DNA of 44,936 nucleotides from an uncultured bacterium (GCA_902760645.1 CACWHC010000013.1:1-44936), one strand, 5' to 3'. Numbered from the stretch's first letter, positions 2-33,900 are shown. Notes: generated by a model not told the origin, from the sequence alone. Made by a program: numbers and translations.

Positions 2-1759
2 ATCAATATGGCTGTACAGAGAAAAGGTCCTGACGGTTGGCATCCTGTTGATAAAGATAATCCGGAAGAAATATATTTTACTAACCTTAATTTCTCGGGT
101 GATTCTACAATTAACGGCAACATCACAGGTGAAAATGATATTAAAAATACTCTTGATATGAAAAATACCGCCGGAAGTACTGTTAATTTTAACGGTGAAG
201 AAATAAATGTTAATACCCTTGATAACAACGGTGACATAAATATTAGTAAAAATGCCGCTATTACAACTGTTGAAGATACTATTACGGGCAACGGTAATTT
301 GAATCTTTTATCGGGGGCATCTTTAGCTTTATCTTCAAATATTACAAATATTGAAAATTCTTTAAACCTTAATAATGCTTTATTTGATATGGAAAACGGT
401 TCTATTGATTCAACTGTTTTTACAAAATTAACTTTATCAGGGGATAACTCAATGAAGGTTGATGTGGATATTGCTTCTCAAACAACCGACACCCTTAAAT
501 TCAACAGTTCTACTGATTTAATCGTAAATCCCAATGCAAATTTAAATGTTTCAAAAGTAAATTTAATGAATACAAATGATGTACAAACTTATACCAATGA
601 AAAATACTACATTCCATTCGTTTCCTCTGATTTTAAAAACCAAAATCTTTTGGGGCATGTAACTTTGAGTGATTCAAGTGATATACTGACCCCAATATTT
701 AAGTATAATTTCGGGTACGAAGAAGATGCCACACAAGGCGGTTTCTTGTTATCAAGAGGAGCAACTAAAGATTATAACAGTTATAACCCTGCTGTTGTAA
801 CATCACCTGTTGCAGCTCAATTTGGAGGATATTTAAACCAGTTAAATTCTTATGAACAGGCTTTTTATAATTATGATATAAAAATGCTTATGACTCGTGA
901 AGAACGTAAGGCTCAGCAAATGTTAAATCGCTATGCCTCGCAGGAAACTCCAAAAGTATTTTCCCCTGTATATTTGCCTGAAAAAGATAGTGCAGGCTGG
1001 ATTAGGCCTTATGCAACATTTGAGAAGGTCGGTCTTCATAACGGACCTAAAGTTGAAAATATTTCTTACGGTTCATATTTCGGAGGAGATTCAGAAACTC
1101 TTACAACCAAGAATGGCTGGGATTTTCAATATTCACTTTATGCAGGTTATAACGGCTCTCACCAAAATTATTCTGGCAATTCAATATACCAAAACGGAGG
1201 TACTCTTGGTTTGACCGGCATTTGGAACAACGGAAACTTTTTTACGGCATTGACTGCCAACGCCGGAGCAGGAGTAGCTGAAGCTTCTACAATGTATGGC
1301 TCGGAGGATATGACAATGCTTATGGCAGGTATAGCATCAAAAACGGGTTACAACTGGGAGTTGGCAAAAGGTAAATTTATAATCCAGCCGAGTTATTTAA
1401 TGTCATATTCGTTTGTTAATACTTTTGATTACACAAATGCTGCCGGATTAAGAATATCTTCCGACCCGTTGCATGCAATAAATATTTCACCCGGACTGAA
1501 ATTTATAGGAAACCTTAAATACGGATGGCAGCCTTACGTTGGGGTGCAAATGGTATGGAATATTATGGATAAGACAGATTTCAGAGCGAATAATGTTGCA
1601 TTGCCCGGTATGAGTGTAAAACCATATTTCCAATACGGGATAGGTATACAAAAACGTTGGGGTGAAAGGTTTACATGCTTTTTCCAAACAATGCTCAGAA
1701 ACGGCGGAATAAACGGTGTTGCATTAACAGCAGGCTTCAGATTTACTCTTGGTAAATAG
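2..1759 (+). CDS. Autotransporter outer-membrane beta-barrel protein, 5' end outside window
   Basis: This is the C-terminal part of a type V secretion autotransporter. The first ~260 residues are a low-complexity Asn/Ser/Thr-rich passenger with repeated short beta-strand patterns (N-I-x-N and D-I-x-I blocks), as in beta-helix passengers. From about residue 320 there are alternating amphipathic strands rich in Gly, Tyr, Phe and Trp, typical of the PF03797-type barrel, which would sit in the outer membrane and carry the passenger to the surface. The last strand ends G-F-R-F-T-L-G-K, so the terminal aromatic of classical barrels is a few residues in from the end. The frame is open to the window edge and the first in-frame ATG (position 8) has no signal peptide after it, so the true start is upstream. 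Passenger function is unknown. Confidence 0.82.
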   Translation: MNMAVQRKGPDGWHPVDKDNPEEIYFTNLNFSGDSTINGNITGENDIKNTLDMKNTAGSTVNFNGEEINVNTLDNNGDINISKNAAITTVEDTITGNGNLNLLSGASLALSSNITNIENSLNLNNALFDMENGSIDSTVFTKLTLSGDNSMKVDVDIASQTTDTLKFNSSTDLIVNPNANLNVSKVNLMNTNDVQTYTNEKYYIPFVSSDFKNQNLLGHVTLSDSSDILTPIFKYNFGYEEDATQGGFLLSRGATKDYNSYNPAVVTSPVAAQFGGYLNQLNSYEQAFYNYDIKMLMTREERKAQQMLNRYASQETPKVFSPVYLPEKDSAGWIRPYATFEKVGLHNGPKVENISYGSYFGGDSETLTTKNGWDFQYSLYAGYNGSHQNYSGNSIYQNGGTLGLTGIWNNGNFFTALTANAGAGVAEASTMYGSEDMTMLMAGIASKTGYNWELAKGKFIIQPSYLMSYSFVNTFDYTNAAGLRISSDPLHAINISPGLKFIGNLKYGWQPYVGVQMVWNIMDKTDFRANNVALPGMSVKPYFQYGIGIQKRWGERFTCFFQTMLRNGGINGVALTAGFRFTLGK

Positions 1760-19078: not shown

Positions 19079-22000
19079 TTATGATACACTTATCTCAGAA
19101 TTAGGATAATAGGTTGGGAATGATGCCTGGTAACCTATTAAATCCTGACATTCCTGTAAGAATTTATCTGCCTGCTTTTTAGCTTCCGAATTTTCAGGTA
19201 GTTTTAGTCCTACCATAATCCTTTGTATCTCACCCAATCTTTTCAAATCATCTGAAAGTACATTAAGATTATTTTTTACATTTTTGGTAATTCCGTTTGT
19301 CGCAGCATACATAGCACTATTCATAATAAGATATTTCGACATATCAGGATTACTTGCTATTTTTTTGAGTATTTCATCTATTGCAGCATCATATATGCCC
19401 ATAGGCTCTCTGTAATTTGACCTTTTTATCTTTGCATCAAGTTTTTTCTTAAATTCTTTTAGCGTTTTCTCATAATTTTCATCATTATCAATGCCTGACA
19501 TAGCTTCCAAATGTTTATTTATAAACTTAACCTGACTATCAAAACTTTTCAAAATACTATGCATGCGATTAATATTTTTACGGGCATCAGAGAACTGCTC
19601 ATCATCCACAATACTGAGAGCAAAGGTTTCACTTAATCCGAGTTCGTTAAAGAAATCTATCAATATCGGAGCATTTTCTTTTGTTAATAACGATGAAAAT
19701 AGTATTGATAAACCATCCGGTGATGCCACAGGGACAAAAGAACCATCAATAAGTTCTATTTGAGAATTTTTAAATGCATCTGCAACAAGATTTAATTTAC
19801 CCTGACGTTTATAACTCATAATTTGCATCTGAAGTTCTACAAGGTTTGCTTTCACAAGAACACCTCTCAATGCACCATAAAGTTCCTCATTTCTTTCCTC
19901 AAGTTCTTTTTTCTTTGCCTCAGAAATATTTCCCGACATTAGCTCAGAATCTTTTGCATTCATCAATAAAAATTCTTCCAGCAATTTTTCAGGCTTATCA
20001 ACTATTGAATGTTTATCATAATATTTTATAAACATATCATAATATTTATCGGCTTCTTCTGCTTTACTCTCATTCCCTCGTCCGAGTTTTATTCTTGCCG
20101 ATATCCATTTATCCAGTATTTCCGCAGCTTTACTTTGGTATCTTGGTTCAAACAATTGCTTCAGCATGTCCTCTTTTGAAGCTTTCAAATTTTTCAAAGC
20201 CTCTTCTTTTGCTTCTTCCATTGTATCGCCATATGCTGTCGTCTGGAATGCTTTAATTTTGTCATATATTTTGTCGGTAAGATATCTGTACACAGCTACG
20301 GACATTTCGCCGGAATCAGTAATTTTAGTTATTTCATCCGATAAATCCTGCAATGTTTCGTCACAAAGATTTGCCGTTACAAAATCTTCCATTAAATCTG
20401 ATACTTCCGAAAAATCGTCATACGAAAGAGTTAAATCATTTTTATTATATTTTGCAAGTATTTCATTTAAATCATCTACAATTTCCATTGATATTATTTG
20501 CGAATCATAAGAATAAATATATGTCATATAATCGTCAAGTTTATCAAACATATTTTTGAAAGCACCTTCTATATCTTCAATATCTCTTATGCGGACAAGC
20601 GGATAACCCGGCATTACACCGTATTTTTTGTAATTAGTATCTTTGTATTTATTAAAAAGTTTGTCTAAATGTAACAATGATATTGCCGAACTGTAATCAG
20701 TATAAATATCATCAAAGGTTTTTTCCTTGACATACGTTACGGTACTGCTTTTTTCCCGTTTGAATTTATTATAATCATAATGAGCTTTTGTTTCTCCTGT
20801 TTCAATATCGCCAAACAGTTTATCTCTGTATATCTGATTATATAAAATATTTACAGCCTCATCATTTTCTGCACGAAGCCGCTTCAGCATATCATAGCCT
20901 GTAATATTTTCGATACCCAAAGCCTCTTTTGTAATTTTATTCCTATACAAACTTTCAAATTCTTTAGTGGTTAAATCTCTTAAATCATTAAATATTCTTA
21001 TAAATTCTTCGTTAGTAGTTGGAGCAAAAGTACTGTCAATCCATTTTTCAATATTTGGCATATTTATTTCTTCAGATTCAGAAAGATAATTGTTTTTAAT
21101 CAGAATTGCTCTTACTTCGTTTGCTAATTCGTCTATTTTTTCATCCTTATTTTCAAAATCCGGAGTCACTTCTACCATATCTTTTTTGAAATTGGATACA
21201 ACAGAAGTAATTGTATGAAGCATACTTCCGTCAAAATCGGAATTTTTCACATTTTTCATATTTTTAATAACAGGCAATAATTCTTTTGGCTTCGACTGAA
21301 TATCATAACGACTGACCCAATCGTCAATGGCTGACGCTATTTCCTTATTGGAAGAATATGTAATATAGTTTTTTATATCACTATTTTTACCAAATACATA
21401 ATAAAAATCCTTAATTGCCTCTTTTTCTATTTTGTTTTTTATTTTTTCTATATCATCCGCATTTTTTACATAGCTGTAATCTTTATATATTGTCGAATTA
21501 TCATACGAAGCAGATACAGCAATTTTATCTAACATCAGCCTTATCGGATTGTTTTTTGGAAGATTCTTATATTCTTCAAATGTTGAGATTCCTTTATCGA
21601 AAGGTCTGGTGCCAACAATTTTCTTCATAAAATCATCAAAATCTTTATCATAACCTTTCCCTGCATTGTCCCCTCTTTCCATAGCCTTTTTAATTTGAGC
21701 CTTGGTCATACTATTTGCATATACTTTTAAAGCAGGTAAACTTTGATAAGGATTTATTAGAAATGTATTTTTTAAGCTGCCGGCACTCTGAGCGACATGA
21801 GGCACCATCCCCGGAGCTATCACATCTGACAAAAGTGGAAATCTGAATTCATCACCGCCGCCGTTAACTATTTTTTTGTAGAGTTTGTCTTCTATGATTT
21901 CAGGTTTTGTTTCTCCAACTTTATCCAATATATTTTCCTGAATATTCCCGTTTAAGTATTTTGAATTTGTGATATAACCCAATTCTCCACCGAAATCTCT

Positions 22001-25000
22001 GGCATAATCAGTTCTGACAAAACCGTTTTTATCAGTCCACACATTTTCAAATTCAGAAGCACCCCAGCTGTTATCATGGAATACTACATATTTAGTTTCG
22101 CCGTTTTTCAGAGTTACGGGAGCAATATCCGCAATATACTGGGCATGCATCGCAGGTCTTGTATGATCAACTGAAGTAGAAGAAATTCCTGAATATACAC
22201 CGTTACGGATATTATCAAACGCTCTCTGACCGTTTTCTTCAATATAATAAGGTCTGTCCGTCATATGTTCTATAATACGGACTTCCTGCGAAGAATATAA
22301 TCCGCTGTTACCTTCTTGCGGAACCCAATAATTACCTGATTTGACACCTATTTTTCTTGCATGATTTTCCAAAGGCTCTTTAAAATCTCTGTATTGGTTC
22401 AGTAATCTTCTGTTAACTACTGCATACCATTCGTTAATATTATTTCTATACTGTTTAAGAGCCGCCTTTTCCATAGGTGATAATGTTGTATATGCTTTTG
22501 GCAAATCAGAATAACTCTTTATGTCATTATTTTTATCTGCCAAAAGCTTATCAATTTGATCAAATCTTCTTTTAAATGCTTTTAATTCGGACTCTCTCGG
22601 GATTTCGCCCAAATCTTCCAGTTTTTTAACTATATCATATCTTACATCTGTATGATTTAAAACATCATTATTTGATTCATCAAATATAAATAGAGCTCTG
22701 TGATACTGATTAATTAATTCTTCAACGTTATTAAAACTTTTTGCAAGTTCTAAGTAGATTTGTTTTGTCTGTTCAATATCCGCATCTTCGGGAACACCAT
22801 TCAAAAGATTAAAATCATGAATCACATTATCGCATTTCTCATGAAACATTAGTTTCCCGATTTTATCGAGATCTTCCGTAAACTTAGTCATATAAGATTC
22901 AAGTCCCATATCATCAAATATTTTTTTGTATTCTTCTTGCGTACATTCACCTGACTCCAAAAGGTCTATTTTTGACTGCAGATATTGTTTTACTTTTCGT
23001 TTAAGAGGACCATCCGCTAATTCTTTTCGCAAATTTTCAACTTTTATAAAAAGTTCTTCATTTTCCTTTTGGGTTTTTGCACTTACGTCTTCTTTATTTG
23101 CAGCTTCCTCCATTTTTGCTCTCAGCTTTCCGCTTAATTTTGCAAATTCTTTTCTTTTCTTTTCATATTTTTCAATTTCATGCTTTGTCGGATTTAAATT
23201 CAAATCATCGGCGATTTCCTGAACAAGTCTTCTGTTTTCAGGTAAATCAAGCTGATTTTTATAATCTTTAATTTCATTAGCAAGTGCATGATACCTGTCT
23301 GCCATAGTAATTGAATGATAGAATTTATCTATTGCATCCGTTGTAACTAACTCTACCTGATTTTTCATTTCAGACAAAATTGCAGCCAAAACTTCCGGAT
23401 CATTATCAACCCCAAGATTTGCAGCAAGTTTACTCTGAATTTCCGGTTTCAAAGTACCTTTACCGATTTTTTCAATTAGTGAATCCATGTTTTCCATCAG
23501 CTTAGTTTCTCTATTCGGAAGATGAAACCTCATCATAAGAGTTTTTCTGTGTTCGGGAATACTCAGCTGTAAAATCTGCTGAGTTCTGTAGCTTGCGGCA
23601 GCTTCATACAAAGTTCTTGCATTTCTAAGCTTTTTGCCTGTGACATTTGAATTAACTCCTGAAGCCTTACTTAAATCTTCCAAAAGTTCCGTCATTTTTT
23701 CTGACAATGCATCAATTTTATTTTTATCGGAATTCGGGAATACAGCTTGCAGATAATTTGAAATTTTATATTCTTTTAAATCTTTTTCTTCATTTGGCAA
23801 ATACGAATACTCACGAAAGTTATCAGGAACTTTTTTAAGTTTATCAGAATTTTTAACTTCAAGATTTCTTAAATCAGACAAAACTTTTGCTATCTGCTTG
23901 TCAAATGTATTTTCTCCGGCTAATTCATATATATATGATTTTAATAGATTATTATTTGCATTTGATATAAACAAATTTTTCTGCATTTCCGAATCGGATT
24001 TTCTTTTCAAAAACTTTTCTTTTTCAACTTGAGCCTTATATTCAGCAATAATTGACTTTGCTTTAACCAAACCTCTGTAATAATCATGTTTCTCTGCCAA
24101 ATCTTTTGATATATCATTCATCAAGTGAGAATCGGTGAACGTATCGAAATAATTAATATCAATAGGACTATAAAATCCGTAAGATTCATTATTTGCACCT
24201 ATTTTATCTGCAACATTCATCCAGTACATAGCAGCAGTATCAACTACTCTGTAACCTCTTGCCATTGCAGTTTTAAAGTCTATATACGGTTTTTGAACAG
24301 GAACTTTGGTATGCGAACCGAGTTTACTCGTATCATAAATCATTAAATTATCGTTATTGTCCAGCTCAGACATGACCATATCAACATAATTTGCCTTATC
24401 TTCATAAGCTAAATCTTTTCTGCAAATTGAAATCGAGGCACACATACCGTGATGTAACTGATTTATTTCCTTTGAATTCGGGAATTCAGATTCAGGCGTA
24501 TTAATGACTATATCATTTATTATTTCCGCAAGAACTCTGTTTTTTTCATTCGACAACTGGGGATTTATTACATAATCATCACTCATAAAATGGTTTAAAC
24601 GCTTTAATATATATAACTTTTGTGCGGTAGGAACCTCTGAAGAAATAACAAAATAATCCAGATTGTTTCCGACATTTTCAAGATTTTTATTTTTCAGTGC
24701 TTTTAACTTATCAAAATCAATTTTTTTGAGTAATTCTTCCCGCTCCCTTAGAATTGCATTTTCTTCCTCTGTATAAGCCTTTTGAGCTTCCATTTGCTTT
24801 AATACGGGGATATACTTCCTCTGAACTTCCCAGTCAGATGCGTATACAGCTATTTTTGCCGCATTATCAAGTTTGGATTTCCATTCATTATATGATTTTT
24901 TATTATCAAGATTTATATTTGTACCGTACCTGAGATTATTTGATACATCAAGAAGAAATTTAACATTTTCTTCGCCTCTTATTTTTGCAAGATTTTCTAT

Positions 25001-25135
25001 TGCCTCATTTATTCTTCTCTGATTTGGCAAATTTAAATCATAATCATTGTCCCTCTTTAGCTGTGAAACTGTGTTTCTATCCTGTCTTTGTCCTTTAAAC
25101 GTAACACCAATTAAATCAACACTGTTTATATTCAT
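19079..25135 (-). CDS. Giant helical protein with a split papain/bleomycin-hydrolase-like catalytic signature
   Basis: 2,018 residues, mostly charged helical and coiled-coil sequence, with no signal peptide or membrane span. Residues 225-234 read N-Q-L-H-H-G-M-C-A-S: Gln226 is six residues before Cys232, the same spacing as the oxyanion Gln and nucleophile of papain. Near 995 is A-M-H997-A-Q-Y, and at 1020-1025 H-D-N1022-S-W-G, the papain NSWG box, followed by N-G-F-V-R. The His-Asn distance of 25 resembles bleomycin hydrolase (24). A helical insertion of ~765 residues lies between Cys and His, and ~1,000 more helical residues follow. I use the ATG at 25135 because GAGGGA lies 11 nt before it; an in-frame TTG 18 nt upstream is less likely. 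Peptidase activity and target are inference. Confidence 0.6.
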   Translation of the reverse strand: MNINSVDLIGVTFKGQRQDRNTVSQLKRDNDYDLNLPNQRRINEAIENLAKIRGEENVKFLLDVSNNLRYGTNINLDNKKSYNEWKSKLDNAAKIAVYASDWEVQRKYIPVLKQMEAQKAYTEEENAILREREELLKKIDFDKLKALKNKNLENVGNNLDYFVISSEVPTAQKLYILKRLNHFMSDDYVINPQLSNEKNRVLAEIINDIVINTPESEFPNSKEINQLHHGMCASISICRKDLAYEDKANYVDMVMSELDNNDNLMIYDTSKLGSHTKVPVQKPYIDFKTAMARGYRVVDTAAMYWMNVADKIGANNESYGFYSPIDINYFDTFTDSHLMNDISKDLAEKHDYYRGLVKAKSIIAEYKAQVEKEKFLKRKSDSEMQKNLFISNANNNLLKSYIYELAGENTFDKQIAKVLSDLRNLEVKNSDKLKKVPDNFREYSYLPNEEKDLKEYKISNYLQAVFPNSDKNKIDALSEKMTELLEDLSKASGVNSNVTGKKLRNARTLYEAAASYRTQQILQLSIPEHRKTLMMRFHLPNRETKLMENMDSLIEKIGKGTLKPEIQSKLAANLGVDNDPEVLAAILSEMKNQVELVTTDAIDKFYHSITMADRYHALANEIKDYKNQLDLPENRRLVQEIADDLNLNPTKHEIEKYEKKRKEFAKLSGKLRAKMEEAANKEDVSAKTQKENEELFIKVENLRKELADGPLKRKVKQYLQSKIDLLESGECTQEEYKKIFDDMGLESYMTKFTEDLDKIGKLMFHEKCDNVIHDFNLLNGVPEDADIEQTKQIYLELAKSFNNVEELINQYHRALFIFDESNNDVLNHTDVRYDIVKKLEDLGEIPRESELKAFKRRFDQIDKLLADKNNDIKSYSDLPKAYTTLSPMEKAALKQYRNNINEWYAVVNRRLLNQYRDFKEPLENHARKIGVKSGNYWVPQEGNSGLYSSQEVRIIEHMTDRPYYIEENGQRAFDNIRNGVYSGISSTSVDHTRPAMHAQYIADIAPVTLKNGETKYVVFHDNSWGASEFENVWTDKNGFVRTDYARDFGGELGYITNSKYLNGNIQENILDKVGETKPEIIEDKLYKKIVNGGGDEFRFPLLSDVIAPGMVPHVAQSAGSLKNTFLINPYQSLPALKVYANSMTKAQIKKAMERGDNAGKGYDKDFDDFMKKIVGTRPFDKGISTFEEYKNLPKNNPIRLMLDKIAVSASYDNSTIYKDYSYVKNADDIEKIKNKIEKEAIKDFYYVFGKNSDIKNYITYSSNKEIASAIDDWVSRYDIQSKPKELLPVIKNMKNVKNSDFDGSMLHTITSVVSNFKKDMVEVTPDFENKDEKIDELANEVRAILIKNNYLSESEEINMPNIEKWIDSTFAPTTNEEFIRIFNDLRDLTTKEFESLYRNKITKEALGIENITGYDMLKRLRAENDEAVNILYNQIYRDKLFGDIETGETKAHYDYNKFKREKSSTVTYVKEKTFDDIYTDYSSAISLLHLDKLFNKYKDTNYKKYGVMPGYPLVRIRDIEDIEGAFKNMFDKLDDYMTYIYSYDSQIISMEIVDDLNEILAKYNKNDLTLSYDDFSEVSDLMEDFVTANLCDETLQDLSDEITKITDSGEMSVAVYRYLTDKIYDKIKAFQTTAYGDTMEEAKEEALKNLKASKEDMLKQLFEPRYQSKAAEILDKWISARIKLGRGNESKAEEADKYYDMFIKYYDKHSIVDKPEKLLEEFLLMNAKDSELMSGNISEAKKKELEERNEELYGALRGVLVKANLVELQMQIMSYKRQGKLNLVADAFKNSQIELIDGSFVPVASPDGLSILFSSLLTKENAPILIDFFNELGLSETFALSIVDDEQFSDARKNINRMHSILKSFDSQVKFINKHLEAMSGIDNDENYEKTLKEFKKKLDAKIKRSNYREPMGIYDAAIDEILKKIASNPDMSKYLIMNSAMYAATNGITKNVKNNLNVLSDDLKRLGEIQRIMVGLKLPENSEAKKQADKFLQECQDLIGYQASFPTYYPNSEISVS

Positions 25136-25160
25136 AAAATTTTTATCCCTCAAGGTCTGA

Positions 25161-25166
25161 ATTATA
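25161..25166 (-). promoter_or_regulatory. Consensus -10 (TATAAT) of the giant-protein gene
   Basis: Minus strand TATAAT, 25 nt before the ATG at 25135. Transcription from about 25154 gives a ~20-nt leader that includes the GAGGGA ribosome site. No good -35 is seen at 16-18 nt. Confidence 0.4.
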
Positions 25167-25375: not shown

Positions 25376-26530
25376 ATGAGGGATAAGACTTTTTTGATGA
25401 TTCCAGGACCTACTCCGGTGCCGGAAAGTGTGATGCTGGATATTGCCCGCCATCCGATTGGACACAGAAGCAGCGAATTTTCTAAAATTTTGGAAAATGT
25501 TTATGCAAACTTAAAATATGTATTCAGAACTAAAAATGATGTATTTGTGTATACTTCAAGCGGTACGGGTGCTATGTGTGCAGCTTTGGAAAACCTGATT
25601 AATGAAGGGGATTCCGTTTTATCTCTTGTACTTGGAAACTTCGGCAACAGATGGGCAAAAATTGCGGCTTCACGGGGTGCGGTTGTTGAAAAAATAGAAG
25701 TACCTACAGGTGAGGTTATTGACCCTGAAGTATTAAGAACGAGATTAGCACAGGATACGGAAAAGAAAATTAAAATAGTTACATTAACTCACAGTGAAAC
25801 TTCAACAGGTGCTGCCAATGATATAAAAACACTTTGTTCAATTATTAGAGAACACGGAGCTTTATCGGTTGTTGACGGGGTAACATCTGTTTGTGCAATG
25901 GAATGCAATCCTGACGAATGGGGAATTGATGTTCTCGTATCAGGTTCACAAAAAGGCTTTATGATTCCTCCGGGATTAGCCTTTCTCGTAGCAAGTGAAA
26001 GAGCTTGGAAAGTTTACGAAGAATGCAAACATCCGAGTTTCTACTGGGATTGGGCAGCCTACAGAAAATCCGTTCAGGCAAATTCAACTCCGTTTACGCC
26101 TGCAGTTAATCTGTTTGTAGGCTTGAATACCGCTTTAGAAATGATTAAAAAAGAAGGTATTGAAAATATGAATGCCCGCCATAAAAGGCATAGTTTGGCA
26201 TTAAGAAACGCCATAAAAGCTATCGGACTTGAGCTTGTTGTAAAAGACGATAAAAACGCAAGTAATTCAATAACTTCAATATTACCGCCTGACGGAATTA
26301 CCGTCCCTGACATTAGAAAAGTAATAAAAGAAGATTTTGATATAGTTGTTGCAAACGGACAGAATGAACTGAAAGATAAAATCTTCAGAATGGGAACTTT
26401 AGGTTTTGTCTGCGACAGAGATTTAATCTCAGCTGTTGGAGCTTTAGAGGCAACTCTATACAAACTCGGTTATAAATTTGACTTGGGCAAAGGTGTTGCA
26501 ACGGTAATTAAAGAATTAGCAAACAAATAA
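25376..26530 (+). CDS. Class V aminotransferase (serine/alanine-glyoxylate type), likely phosphoserine step
   Basis: 384-residue PLP enzyme of fold type I, class V, closest in pattern to the serine-pyruvate/alanine-glyoxylate aminotransferases of cyanobacteria (also called the soluble hydrogenase 42-kDa subunit). Visible marks: G-P-T-P-V-P at 11-16, S-S-G-T-G-A-M at 61-67 (phosphate cup), D167-G-V-T-S, and the Schiff-base Lys193 in S-G-S-Q-K-G-F. It heads the operon with serA and serB, and no separate SerC-type gene is present here, so it probably converts 3-phosphohydroxypyruvate to phosphoserine. Broad-specificity class V enzymes are known to do this in some methanogens. Glyoxylate transamination is the alternative. 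Confidence 0.85.
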   Translation: MRDKTFLMIPGPTPVPESVMLDIARHPIGHRSSEFSKILENVYANLKYVFRTKNDVFVYTSSGTGAMCAALENLINEGDSVLSLVLGNFGNRWAKIAASRGAVVEKIEVPTGEVIDPEVLRTRLAQDTEKKIKIVTLTHSETSTGAANDIKTLCSIIREHGALSVVDGVTSVCAMECNPDEWGIDVLVSGSQKGFMIPPGLAFLVASERAWKVYEECKHPSFYWDWAAYRKSVQANSTPFTPAVNLFVGLNTALEMIKKEGIENMNARHKRHSLALRNAIKAIGLELVVKDDKNASNSITSILPPDGITVPDIRKVIKEDFDIVVANGQNELKDKIFRMGTLGFVCDRDLISAVGALEATLYKLGYKFDLGKGVATVIKELANK

Positions 26531-30140: not shown

Positions 30141-33100
30141 TTAATTTTCCGATTTTTCTTTTTGAAAAAGATGCTTAACTTTATATTTTAAAGTTTTCTT
30201 TTCAGCTTCTTTTGCCGCTTCCATAGCTTTTGCTTCTAATATAACTTCTTCAACAGTCGTTGCCGTACTGCCTTCAATCGGATCCGGAATTGAATTCACA
30301 AACTCAGAAGCTTTATCAAATTGTGCCTGCGTTGCAAGCCATTTAAATGATTTAATAAGCGTTAAAGGTTTTGAAGCATCCCCTCTGACCCCAAGCTGGA
30401 ATTTTGTAGCTGATGTATCAACATATTTATTATCGAATGAAGGTAATAACGCAAACACATCTTCCGGAACTGTTTCACAGAACACAGAAAAAGCTTTTGC
30501 CGTAACTACATTCATACTCGCTGCACTATTCATTAGATTTACAGGATTTATTGCATTCAAAGGTCCAAGTAAATTAGAAAGTATTGAAGTAATTTTTACA
30601 CGAACTTTCATATCCGCATAATTTTTTACAATATCAAAATTGCCCAAAATATGTAAATTCATTACATTTCCCTTTGATGAAATATAATCAATAGCACATA
30701 TTCCGTCTTTTAGTACAATTAATCCCTTCAACTCATTATAGTGTGTCGTATCAATCGTTGATAATGAATTAATTACACCTCCAAGTGCAGTTTGGAAGAA
30801 TTGTGATTCTCTGATATTTTCTGCAAGAATAAGATTTTCCAGTTTTCCAAAAGGCCCGAACTGCCCGTCTTTGGCTTGGAAAGTAACCGTACCTTTAATA
30901 CCTTTAATCTGTTCCTCTTGGGTTTTTGCAGCACCATTTATATCTAATTTTGCATCAAAATTAGTAGTACCTGATATAGCATCTTTCATGCCTGCAGCAT
31001 CTAACAGTGCTTTTTCGATATTTATATCCTGTCCATTCAAGTCAACACTTATGAGTGTTTTAATTAAGTCGACATCAATATTACCTCTTACACTTCCGTT
31101 AAAAATATTTGTCAAAAGATGACGCAAGTATAAATGATTTCCTCTTAATAACATCTGAGATACCGTATTTGTAAGTTCAATATTACCGGTAACTATTCTT
31201 CTGAAATTTATTAATCCGTTTGGAATAACAACAGGAATATCTTGATTACTTGATGATGCGGAGGACGACTGCGGCAAATAACGGGGAATAGCATTCGTTA
31301 CAGCCGTAACGTCATCAAGATTAACTGATTTTGAATTAACACGTAAATCATTAATTACGATATTTTTGCTTGATTCAAGAGAATATTTACCGCTTGCACT
31401 AATATCGGAATTTCTCATCATAAAATCCTGAATATTAAATATCAGTTCTCGACCGCTGACTCTTATATTCAGATTTTTAAGAGCAGAATGAATTTCAGGA
31501 ATAATAAGATTTCTTATATTTATGTTACTTCTTATTAATGGAGAACTTGCATTACCAAATACATAAGACTTAGTCCCATCAAGAGTAAAAGAAGATTTCG
31601 GGAATACAAAAATCTTACCCTCCATATTATGCGGAATATTCAACTTCATAAGATTTATACGATTATGCTCTATTGTACCATCCAGCTCAACAAGCTTATC
31701 AAGAGTTTCAACCTGCTGACCATTCTCATCTATTGTATAATTTCTTGTATACAGACCTGTATTTTTAATCTTTATTCTGTTTGGCTTGAAATCAACTGTT
31801 GCCTGAATTGCAGCTTTTTTATTCTGCAGATTTTTAAAATCTACAGGGGTAATATAGTTATTTTCATCACTTAAAGCTTTCGCAAGCATAGATACTTTTG
31901 CATTATTACCGCTAAGTGACATTTGTACAGGAATCTTACCCTTTGCGTTTATATATGGCTTAAATTCTCTGCCTATTAATTTAATTAAATCAGGAGTAGT
32001 AATTTCCCCCTCTGCATTAAAATCAATATTTTCCAAATTCAGATAATCGGTTACACTACCTGAATATCTGATTGCGGATTTTTCATTAAAATACAATAAA
32101 TTCTGCATTATATTGATATTTCTGTCCTGAATTTCAACATTTAATTTAGGAATTGATATTACAGAAGCTGTTTTCGGAAATATTAATTTAAAATCACTGT
32201 TATCAACTTTCCCTGATAAAGACGCCTTCTTTGCCTCAAAAACAAACGCAGACAATAATTCTTTGTTTTTAATATTTAAGTTATTTTTTTTATCAGCAAA
32301 ATCAAAATTGCTAAGTTTAAACTTGGCGTTAGTCACAGCCTTCTTCATCTTACCCTCAATTTTCAACACGGTTGAAAAATATCCTGATTTCAGATTGAAA
32401 GAATTACGCAAATCTTTTGGGGCAAAGGCACTAAACAATTTTGTTAAAGGCACACCATTCGCATTGACATTAATATCCATATATGATTTTTCGTCAATAG
32501 TTCCGTTAATATCAACTTTTGAATTTCCGACAGACAATCCGGAATTTTCTATTTTTAAAATATTATTATCTAACAGTACATTGATATTTGCAGCTGAAAT
32601 TACTTCACCAAGGTTTCTGACTTTCAAAGCTCCATTCTGAACTTTTATATACCCGTTCGATTTTAATTTTTTAAAATTTGTTTTAATATGACAGTCAACT
32701 AAAAGAGAACCCATAGCTTTGAACTGATTTAATTCATTTTTTATATTTACTGATTGCAAATAAGCTTCAACAAGCGATAAAAGCTGTTGGAATTTAATTG
32801 TACTTGTCTTTATGCTCATATCAAGTTTTGGATGACGTGAATAATTTACCTTTCCGAGCAGCATGATATTTTCGTCATTTGATGCATAGAAATTACTGTC
32901 AATATTGGCAACTTTACCGACAGTCTTAATTCTGAAATAACTTTCCGGTAACTGAATCTTTGATAATTTTAACGTTATATTATCGGCGTTAAAATAACCG
33001 TATGAAGTTAACCCGCTTCCCTCATAATATCTTATTCTGATTTTTGAATCAATATTAGTCTTTAAATCATATGTCTGATACGTTTTTACTGGATTAATAA

Positions 33101-33857
33101 ACGGGATATCAATCTTTTCAGCTCTGTCATCATCCTCATCTAATTTTGGAGAAGGCGGAGGTAAAAATGTATCAATATCAACATTCGCAGTAATATTATG
33201 GTTTCTGTCACTAAATAATTCTGCCAAAGTTCTTATTCTTATACTTTCACCGTTAAAGTACCCAAAGATAAGTTTTTCTCCGTGCAAATCAAGATAATGT
33301 CCGCTGCCGAAGTCTTTAACAAGAACTTTATAATTATGTAACCTTACATTTGGGATAACTATTCTTATCCATTCCGGATTAAAATGAAATCCGCTTTCCT
33401 CATTTATTACCTGTTTTTCACCAAATGTTGCTTCTTTCCTTTTGTTTAATATATTTTCAATATGTTTTACAATTTTGTAATCTTCGCCATTTTTCATAAT
33501 TTCCGCATTTATAACAGGGTTTTCAATATCAACACCTGAAACCCTTGCTGACAAAATCAATATATGCGGTAGAGATACAACGGCTTTTATACCGTCAGAA
33601 GTAAACAGAGTGGACTTATCCGGCAAAGACACTTTAATATTTTCCGCCTTAAATCCGACTCCTAAAAGCGGAGTAGTCACAATTTTTTCGTTTGAATAAT
33701 CCAAATCAAGATTTGCCTGTTCTTTTACAAGCTTTTGAATATCCGCTTTATAAATACTCAAATCTATAACTCTTGGCAGTACAAACAAAAACCCTGCATA
33801 CACCGCAACTAATATAACGCAGCAAATTATACCTAATATCTTAAAAAATTTCTTCAT
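30141..33857 (-). CDS. AsmA-like envelope protein
   Basis: 1,238 residues. One N-terminal membrane anchor (~4-26) is followed by a very long beta-strand-rich, non-cytoplasmic chain. The AsmA opening is clear (V-L-P-R-V-I-D after the TM, then a segment that brackets L-G-V-G-F-K-A-E-N-I). The C-terminal ~300 residues contain the conserved AsmA_2-like pattern, with F-N-G-S-V-R-G-N-I-D, G-T-T-N-F-D-A-K-L and G-P-F-G-K-L. Such proteins bridge inner and outer membranes and are linked to phospholipid transport and outer membrane assembly. Start at 33857 because AAGGGAT is 3 nt before it; 13 extra in-frame residues upstream lack a ribosome site. The tail (~1205-1238) is charged and helical. Confidence 0.8.
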   Translation of the reverse strand: MKKFFKILGIICCVILVAVYAGFLFVLPRVIDLSIYKADIQKLVKEQANLDLDYSNEKIVTTPLLGVGFKAENIKVSLPDKSTLFTSDGIKAVVSLPHILILSARVSGVDIENPVINAEIMKNGEDYKIVKHIENILNKRKEATFGEKQVINEESGFHFNPEWIRIVIPNVRLHNYKVLVKDFGSGHYLDLHGEKLIFGYFNGESIRIRTLAELFSDRNHNITANVDIDTFLPPPSPKLDEDDDRAEKIDIPFINPVKTYQTYDLKTNIDSKIRIRYYEGSGLTSYGYFNADNITLKLSKIQLPESYFRIKTVGKVANIDSNFYASNDENIMLLGKVNYSRHPKLDMSIKTSTIKFQQLLSLVEAYLQSVNIKNELNQFKAMGSLLVDCHIKTNFKKLKSNGYIKVQNGALKVRNLGEVISAANINVLLDNNILKIENSGLSVGNSKVDINGTIDEKSYMDINVNANGVPLTKLFSAFAPKDLRNSFNLKSGYFSTVLKIEGKMKKAVTNAKFKLSNFDFADKKNNLNIKNKELLSAFVFEAKKASLSGKVDNSDFKLIFPKTASVISIPKLNVEIQDRNINIMQNLLYFNEKSAIRYSGSVTDYLNLENIDFNAEGEITTPDLIKLIGREFKPYINAKGKIPVQMSLSGNNAKVSMLAKALSDENNYITPVDFKNLQNKKAAIQATVDFKPNRIKIKNTGLYTRNYTIDENGQQVETLDKLVELDGTIEHNRINLMKLNIPHNMEGKIFVFPKSSFTLDGTKSYVFGNASSPLIRSNINIRNLIIPEIHSALKNLNIRVSGRELIFNIQDFMMRNSDISASGKYSLESSKNIVINDLRVNSKSVNLDDVTAVTNAIPRYLPQSSSASSSNQDIPVVIPNGLINFRRIVTGNIELTNTVSQMLLRGNHLYLRHLLTNIFNGSVRGNIDVDLIKTLISVDLNGQDINIEKALLDAAGMKDAISGTTNFDAKLDINGAAKTQEEQIKGIKGTVTFQAKDGQFGPFGKLENLILAENIRESQFFQTALGGVINSLSTIDTTHYNELKGLIVLKDGICAIDYISSKGNVMNLHILGNFDIVKNYADMKVRVKITSILSNLLGPLNAINPVNLMNSAASMNVVTAKAFSVFCETVPEDVFALLPSFDNKYVDTSATKFQLGVRGDASKPLTLIKSFKWLATQAQFDKASEFVNSIPDPIEGSTATTVEEVILEAKAMEAAKEAEKKTLKYKVKHLFQKEKSEN

Positions 33858-33900
33858 AATATCCCTTCTTATAATATTGATATTATGGTAATTCAAAAGA

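What the first reader, a model, noticed from the sequence alone, without database searches (positions are those of the whole stretch)
19079..25135. A 2,018-residue protein carrying a papain-type catalytic set split by ~765 residues
Directly visible: N-Q226-x5-C232-A-S, A-M-H997-A and H-D-N1022-S-W-G. Established: in papain-fold peptidases the oxyanion Gln lies six residues before the Cys nucleophile, and NSWG marks the catalytic Asn. His-Asn spacing is 16 in papain and 24 in bleomycin hydrolase; here it is 25. Inference: this is a C1-like cysteine peptidase with a huge helical insertion between its two half-domains and a 1,000-residue helical tail, with no secretion signal. Such an architecture is not one I know, and it could be a self-processing enzyme or an effector delivered to other cells.
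Basis: partly seen in the sequence, partly recalled or inferred. Interest (0 to 1): 0.78.

Follow-up and report, generated by a model that had tools for sequence, protein, structure and literature searches.

The report
Giant calpain-like cysteine peptidase, split lobes
A gut bacterium of the order Gastranaerophilales encodes a 2,018-residue protein whose papain/calpain-type active site is intact but split by a ~590-residue helical block; it belongs to a previously unnamed family of such enzymes that is confined, as far as searched, to this bacterial order.

Summary
The gene lies on the minus strand (25135..19079, 2,018 aa). Gln226, Cys232, His997, Asp1021, Asn1022, Trp1024 and Gly1025 are identical in all 47 aligned homologues. 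A confident AlphaFold2 model of residues 1-1130 (pLDDT 89, pTM 0.81) aligns with solved papain-fold peptidases across both catalytic halves: calpain cores first (Z up to 11.8, 217 residues), then staphopains, a CDI papain-like toxin and cathepsins. The insertion between the lobes (about 345-933) and the tail (1111-2018) are helical and much less conserved than the lobes; the tail matches no known fold. It occurs in 141 of 383 sampled genomes of the order and in none outside it in the phylum sample, without a fixed neighbour. Delivery to other cells is unsupported: no signal peptide, no VirB4, no T6SS sheath. Substrate and self-processing are untested.

The parts
19079..25135 (-). Coding sequence of the 2,018-aa protein (ATG at 25135, stop codon at 19079-19081)
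   Evidence: homologue starts align with the ATG
25046..25099 (-). Residues 13-30: N-terminal motif F-K-G-x-R-E-D-R-N-T-V-x-Q-L; best conserved stretch of the protein, R17 in 47/47
   Evidence: median identity 61%; the N-terminal region was found in no other protein of 26 genomes
24581..25045 (-). Residues 31-185: N-terminal helical region
   Evidence: Model m980d8176b6c3; median identity 47%
24104..24580 (-). Residues 186-344: first catalytic lobe (calpain PC1-like) with the oxyanion Gln and the nucleophile Cys
   Evidence: median identity 51%, 29 of 159 columns fixed in at least 45/47
24458..24460 (-). Gln226 codon, oxyanion-hole glutamine six residues before the Cys
   Evidence: 47/47 Gln
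24440..24442 (-). Cys232 codon, nucleophile
   Evidence: 47/47 Cys
22337..24103 (-). Residues 345-933: helical insertion between the two catalytic lobes
   Evidence: All-helical in the model except a short strand pair; median identity 21-27%; about 275-300 residues shorter in short-form homologues
21806..22336 (-). Residues 934-1110: second catalytic lobe (calpain PC2-like) with His and Asn
   Evidence: median identity 47%
22145..22147 (-). His997 codon, catalytic base
   Evidence: 47/47 His
22031..22072 (-). Residues 1022-1035, N-x-W-G-x2-E-x4-W-x-D, with catalytic Asn1022; same spacing as calpain-1 NPWGEVEWTGAWSD
   Evidence: N, W, G, E 47/47, W1033 46/47, D1035 43/47; calpain sequence verified
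19082..21805 (-). Residues 1111-2018: helical tail
   Evidence: Model mdceec51b1435 of residues 1106-2018, pLDDT 85.6, pTM 0.68; no known fold found; median identity 21-26%

Best explanation
The gene encodes an active papain-fold cysteine peptidase (or iso/transpeptidase). Cys232 is the nucleophile, His997 the base, Asn1022 the orienting residue and Gln226 the oxyanion-hole residue (inferred from conserved motifs and fold). As in calpain, the active site should form in the cleft between two lobes (186-344 and 934-1110). Here the inter-lobe junction carries a ~590-residue helical domain, and a ~900-residue helical scaffold follows. These fast-evolving helical parts most likely hold, open or close the cleft and select the substrate, so that activity depends on binding a partner or substrate (inferred). 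The conserved N-terminal FKGxREDRNTVxQL segment probably docks on the core as a structural or pro-segment (inferred, weak). It is a single-copy accessory enzyme of Gastranaerophilales acting in the cytosol, or leaving the cell by a route not identified.
For: Seven active-site columns identical in 47/47 homologues. Confident model, pLDDT 89 and pTM 0.81. VIA alignment to calpain cores Z 11.8 / rmsd 4.4 / 217 aligned (6bjd) and Z 11.7 / 4.0 / 215 (1kxr), spanning model residues 190-1109; staphopain C Z 10.6 / 3.4 / 155; CDI papain-like toxin 9l5u Z 9.4 / 2.4 / 129; cathepsin S Z 8.2 / 3.2 / 144. Calpain-type N-x-W-G-x2-E-x4-W-x-D. Catalytic lobes 47-51% identical versus 21-27% for insertion and tail, so selection guards the active-site lobes. 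Long intact frames in most homologues.
Against: Foldseek's own E-values are not significant (best papain-fold row SERA5E, E 0.65, probability 0.77), and Z near 11 over ~215 of 1,130 residues is moderate. Profile-profile comparison with C1 and C2 alignments is insignificant (probabilities 2.5-4%). No activity, substrate or cleavage data. The cytosolic location is an absence argument.
Confidence: 0.78

Rival explanations
1. It is an effector or toxin delivered into other cells (competing bacteria, protozoa or host cells), with the helical parts as translocation and receptor-binding modules.
For: Papain-fold CDI toxins are among the structural neighbours; large size, accessory distribution and patchy phylogeny; gut and rumen habitat.
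Against: No signal peptide or transmembrane segment by hydropathy. No VirB4-type ATPase in 58 genomes with and without the gene and no T6SS sheath protein in 17 genomes that carry it. No adjacent immunity-like or export gene shared between loci. Catalytic lobes are N-terminal and central, not a swappable C-terminal warhead.
Confidence: 0.15
2. It is a self-processing polyprotein-like enzyme: the peptidase cuts its own chain, for example after the N-terminal FKGxRED segment or before the tail, to release mature parts.
For: Very long chain with sharply bounded conserved and variable regions; conserved N-terminal segment next to a disordered start.
Against: No conserved cleavage-like motif stands out at the lobe/insertion or lobe/tail borders; the N-terminal segment is helical and contiguous with the fold from residue 16. 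Not tested by any experiment.
Confidence: 0.2
3. It is a true, highly diverged member of calpain family C2, derived from the C2 proteins that are abundant in the same order.
For: Calpains are the best structural neighbours; calpain-type motif after the Asn; Gastranaerophilales carry many Peptidase_C2 proteins, some with EF-hand matches; the weak core-versus-C2 profile alignment puts Cys, His and N-x-W-G in register over 178 columns.
Against: PF00648 does not match the window protein and is not among the families listed for its 46 relatives; profile-profile probability 2.5-2.8%; the G-D-C-W nucleophile motif of C2 is G-M-C-A here. Calpain Z exceeds staphopain by only 1.2, partly through aligned length.
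Confidence: 0.35
4. It is a catalytically dead scaffold, or a decaying or phage-derived gene, and the motif is a relic.
For: Large helical proteins of phage tape-measure type are common weak Foldseek rows in the viral library.
Against: 47/47 conservation of the active site against 21-27% identity elsewhere; open frames intact in most genomes; no relative in 50,697 phage records or in IMG/VR contigs.
Confidence: 0.04

Closest known systems
Calpain protease core (MEROPS C2, PF00648; e.g. 6bjd, 1kxr)
   Same: Two-lobed papain fold, Cys in the first lobe, His and Asn in the second; N-x-W-G-x2-E-x4-W-x-D after the Asn; best structural neighbour
   Different: ~590-residue helical insertion between the lobes, GMCA instead of GDCW, no Pfam C2 match, no recognised EF-hand, 900-residue helical tail
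Papain/cathepsin family (C1, PF00112)
   Same: Papain fold, Gln at -6 from Cys, Asn-Ser/Thr-Trp-Gly
   Different: No Pfam C1 match; Glu, not Trp, six residues after the Asn; insertion between lobes; weaker structural match (cathepsins Z about 8)
Staphopains (C47; 8oig, 1cv8)
   Same: Papain fold, Z 10.4-10.6
   Different: Small secreted enzymes (173 residues in the chains matched) without the insertion or tail
CDI papain-like CdiA-CT toxin (8ssm, 9l5u)
   Same: Core fold, rmsd 2.4 over 129 residues
   Different: Small C-terminal toxin domain with an immunity partner; neither arrangement is seen here
Gastranaerophilales Peptidase_C2 proteins (e.g. own genome C2:133-138 kb, L191)
   Same: Same genomes, calpain-type domain
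   Different: Canonical QGxxGDCW-type motif and Pfam C2 match toward the C-terminal end of the 400-1,000-aa proteins scanned, some with EF-hand or LysM

Membership tests
Papain-like superfamily (clan CA) | Papain fold spanning nucleophile and His/Asn lobes | tested here: met
   VIA Z up to 11.8 to papain-fold peptidases over model 190..1109; papain-fold families fill most of the top rows. Foldseek E-values alone not significant.
Papain-like superfamily (clan CA) | Cys, His, Asn in this order with Gln at Cys-6, conserved | tested here: met
   47/47 at all four positions
Papain-like superfamily (clan CA) | Cys, His, Asn and Gln meeting in one site at catalytic distances | not testable with these tools
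   Model coordinates are not exposed; only aligned ranges were returned
Papain-like superfamily (clan CA) | Hydrolase activity | not testable with these tools
   Needs protein
Peptidase C1 (PF00112) | Match to the family profile | tested here: not met
   No hit for the window protein; not among the families listed for 46 relatives; none in its genome; profile-profile probability 4% against 23 C1 sequences of the phylum
Peptidase C1 (PF00112) | N-S-W-G-x2-W-G-x2-G-Y after the catalytic Asn (pattern recalled) | tested here: not met
   Glu in 47/47 at Asn+6; G-G-x2-G-Y comes 27-32 residues after the Asn instead
Calpain C2 (PF00648) | Match to the family profile | tested here: not met
   No hit; profile-profile probability 2.5% (C2 of the phylum) and 2.8% (Gastranaerophilales C2)
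Calpain C2 (PF00648) | Q-G-x2-G-D-C-W nucleophile motif | tested here: not met
   Q-x3-G-x-C kept (G230 in 46/47), but Asp-Cys-Trp is Met-Cys-Ala
Calpain C2 (PF00648) | N-P-W-G-x2-E-W-x-G-x-W-x-D in the His/Asn lobe | tested here: met
   N, W, G, E, W, D at identical spacing, 43-47 of 47; the Pro is Ser/Thr and the first Trp and Gly of E-W-x-G are not kept
Calpain C2 (PF00648) | Closest solved structures are calpain cores | tested here: met
   Ranks 1-11; lead over staphopain 1.2 Z
Calpain C2 (PF00648) | Calcium dependence (core Ca sites or EF-hands) | tested here: inconclusive
   No EF-hand Pfam match in the window protein; core Ca ligands not examined

The most novel reading that the evidence does not exclude
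A new clan-CA peptidase family, restricted to one order of gut bacteria, in which a ~590-residue helical machine is built into the hinge between the two calpain-type lobes, so that lobe closure, and therefore proteolysis, is gated by that insertion and the helical tail instead of by calcium.
Probability: 0.4. Interest if true: 0.68.

Novelty: new variant of a known kind. Interest (0 to 1): 0.55.

Why it matters
Pfam and NCBIfam do not name this family, although it occurs in about a third of sampled genomes of a largely uncultured gut order. It shows a papain/calpain active site conserved across a ~590-residue helical block inserted between the lobes, and it offers a natural test of whether lobe closure in calpain-type enzymes can be controlled by an inserted domain. 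Together with the many C2 proteins in the same genomes, it marks calpain-type proteolysis as a feature of these bacteria.

Tried and rejected
Pfam, NCBIfam, PADLOC and PHROGs scans of the protein: nothing above cut-offs or convincing. PDB sequence search with the protein, the full alignment and each catalytic half: chance helical hits only. Phage records and IMG/VR: no relative. Conserved gene neighbours: none; the commonest shared neighbour families occur in 4 of about 33 loci at varying positions. N-terminal 'FKG' as a general sorting tag: the motif is not enriched at N-termini of 1,073 neighbouring proteins (0.75% against 0.67% background per 60 residues), and a stricter search for one remembered related motif gave one hit in 15 genomes. 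The N-terminal 177-residue region as a module shared with other proteins: found only in this family, single copy. Secretion by T4SS or T6SS: no VirB4 or VipA/TssB; T1SS, T3SS/flagellar export and lysis were not tested. Helical tail: no fold match above the range of chance helical bundles (best Z 9.2 with rmsd 14.7). Empty-site comparison in the genus: the divergent neighbour gene occurs only in the same two genomes, so no empty site could be read. The first hhalign runs were set in global mode by mistake and were replaced.

Full report
WHAT IS THERE. The in-frame TTG at 25153 gives six more residues but homologues begin at the ATG. The quoted residues are exact: Q226, C232, H997, N1022, with Cys-His distance 765 and His-Asn distance 25. 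The genome is 1.96 Mb in 29 contigs. Its relatives' records are Candidatus Gastranaerophilales / Melainabacteria MAGs, many from rumen or gut (record titles).

HOMOLOGUES. A search of 57 related genomes found homologues in 14. A profile search (A1) found matches in 141 of 383 genomes of the order, a few of these being marginal short matches, and in 26 of 52 genera. In 292 genomes sampled from the phylum, only members of the same order matched. No relative was found in 50,697 phage records or IMG/VR. The family is essentially single-copy per genome, and its N-terminal 177 residues occur in no other protein of 26 genomes at a significant E-value. Neighbouring genes are not shared between loci. 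In a FastTree of the core, the window gene and its nearest relative (G012, the only other carrier among 13 genomes of the genus) nest inside the sequences of another genus, next to L044, and families f3, f4 and f6 interleave with f1. This suggests horizontal exchange, without having been tested statistically.

CONSERVATION. In 47 distinct homologues aligned with MAFFT, Gln226, Cys232, His997, Asp1021, Asn1022, Trp1024 and Gly1025 are identical in all. His-Asn spacing runs from 20 to 33 and Cys-His spacing from 467 to 765, with a short-insertion class (467-490) that includes 1,371-1,388-aa proteins. Median identity to the window protein is 61% for residues 13-30, 47% for 31-185, 51% for the first lobe (186-344), 21-27% for the insertion (345-933), 47% for the second lobe (934-1110) and 21-26% for the tail. 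Selection therefore guards the two catalytic lobes and the N-terminal segment, and leaves insertion and tail comparatively free.

STRUCTURE. AlphaFold2 on residues 1-1130 with 47 natural sequences gave pLDDT 89 and pTM 0.81; the insertion is almost entirely helical. Foldseek against the PDB gave no significant E-value, but its likeliest rows include papain-fold peptidases (SERA5E, probability 0.77). Re-alignment of Foldseek's candidates by VIA-align 2 put calpain protease cores first (6bjd Z 11.8, rmsd 4.4, 217 aligned; 1kxr Z 11.7, rmsd 4.0, 215 aligned), then staphopains (Z 10.2-10.6), a CDI papain-like toxin (9l5u Z 9.4, rmsd 2.4, 129 aligned) and cathepsins (Z about 8), with aligned ranges from about 190 (or 36) to 1109. 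Matches thus draw on both halves across the insertion. The residue-to-residue geometry could not be read, because coordinates are not given. The tail (1106-2018) was folded with 41 sequences (pLDDT 85.6, pTM 0.68), is helical, and matched nothing beyond chance helical bundles.

C1 OR C2? Pfam's Peptidase_C1 and Peptidase_C2 models miss the protein, and neither is listed for its 46 relatives. I built alignments of C2 and C1 proteins from the phylum and compared them with the spliced core of this family (186-344 plus 934-1112) by hhalign: probability 2.5% (C2 of the phylum), 2.8% (Gastranaerophilales C2) and 4.0% (C1), none significant; the C2 alignment nevertheless runs over 178 columns with Cys, His and N-x-W-G in register. 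Control pairs: the two C2 sets gave 100%, C1 against the phylum's C2 set gave 87%, C1 against the Gastranaerophilales C2 set 8.7%, so an insignificant score does not exclude kinship. The stretch after the Asn has Glu at +6, Trp at +11 and Asp at +13 (47, 46 and 43 of 47), exactly the spacing in calpain-1 (NPWGEVEWTGAWSD, verified in PDB sequences), and not the W-G that I recall at +6/+7 in papains. On the other hand the C2 nucleophile motif GDCW is GMCA here. I therefore do not file it in C1 or C2: it is a separate family of the papain superfamily that resembles calpains most. A published survey groups papain, cathepsins, calpains and staphopain in one cluster of that superfamily and stresses its many insertions (PMC10318531).

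MECHANISM. Shown: conserved catalytic set, papain-type fold match across both halves, helical insertion at the lobe junction, helical tail, no hydrophobic export signal. Inferred: thiol nucleophile chemistry of Cys232 with His997/Asn1022 and Gln226; lobe closure as the control step, as is established for calpain (my knowledge); the insertion and tail as gate and substrate selector; cytosolic action. Delivery into other cells has no support: no VirB4-like ATPase in 58 genomes and no VipA/TssB in 17, but other routes were not tested. Self-processing is possible and untested.

CONTEXT. Gastranaerophilales genomes, including this one (contig C2, 133-138 kb), also carry Peptidase_C2 proteins with canonical QGxxGDCW-type motifs, often below Pfam's cut-off in the genome scan; seven full proteins checked all passed it, two also with EF-hand matches (one above cut-off) and one with LysM. 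A full-text search found no paper holding both 'calpain' and 'Melainabacteria'; the library is incomplete.

VERDICT. Observation confirmed; interpretation right in architecture, imprecise in family, unsupported in its effector suggestion. A new variant of a known kind.

Noticed in passing
Own genome G000:C2:133375-137474 (locus L191) and loci L192-L210: Calpain-family (Peptidase_C2) proteins are frequent in Gastranaerophilales; many hits fall just below Pfam's cut-off in the genome scan. Several combine the C2 domain with N-terminal EF-hand-like or LysM sequences. No paper found on calpains in this group.
   Followed up: partly
window 25046-25099 (minus strand): The N-terminal FKGxREDRNTVxQL segment is the best conserved stretch of the protein although it directly follows a disordered start. 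Role unknown; possibly a docking pro-segment.
   Followed up: partly
window 25161-25166 (minus strand): A perfect TATAAT lies about 25 nt before the start codon, with GAGGG close to the ATG, suggesting the gene has its own promoter and a very short leader.
   Followed up: no
window 30141-33896 (minus strand): A ~1,251-aa ORF whose relatives (1,233-1,255 aa) lie within 3-860 nt of the peptidase gene in three other loci (L027, L066, L076); not identified further.
   Followed up: no
window 25376-26530 (plus strand): The divergently transcribed ORF, which looks like an aminotransferase (not scanned against families), occurs in only the same two of 13 genomes of the genus that carry the peptidase gene.
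   Followed up: partly
G109:C58:1523-5844 (L216): Two neighbouring ORFs of about 1,200 aa with Peptidase_C1 domains (E 1e-28 and 2e-23) in one Gastranaerophilales genome, an otherwise C1-free order in this sample.
   Followed up: no
L110 (ONYB01000044.1): A record titled 'uncultured Brachyspira sp.' carries this Gastranaerophilales-type gene; probably a mislabelled bin.
   Followed up: no
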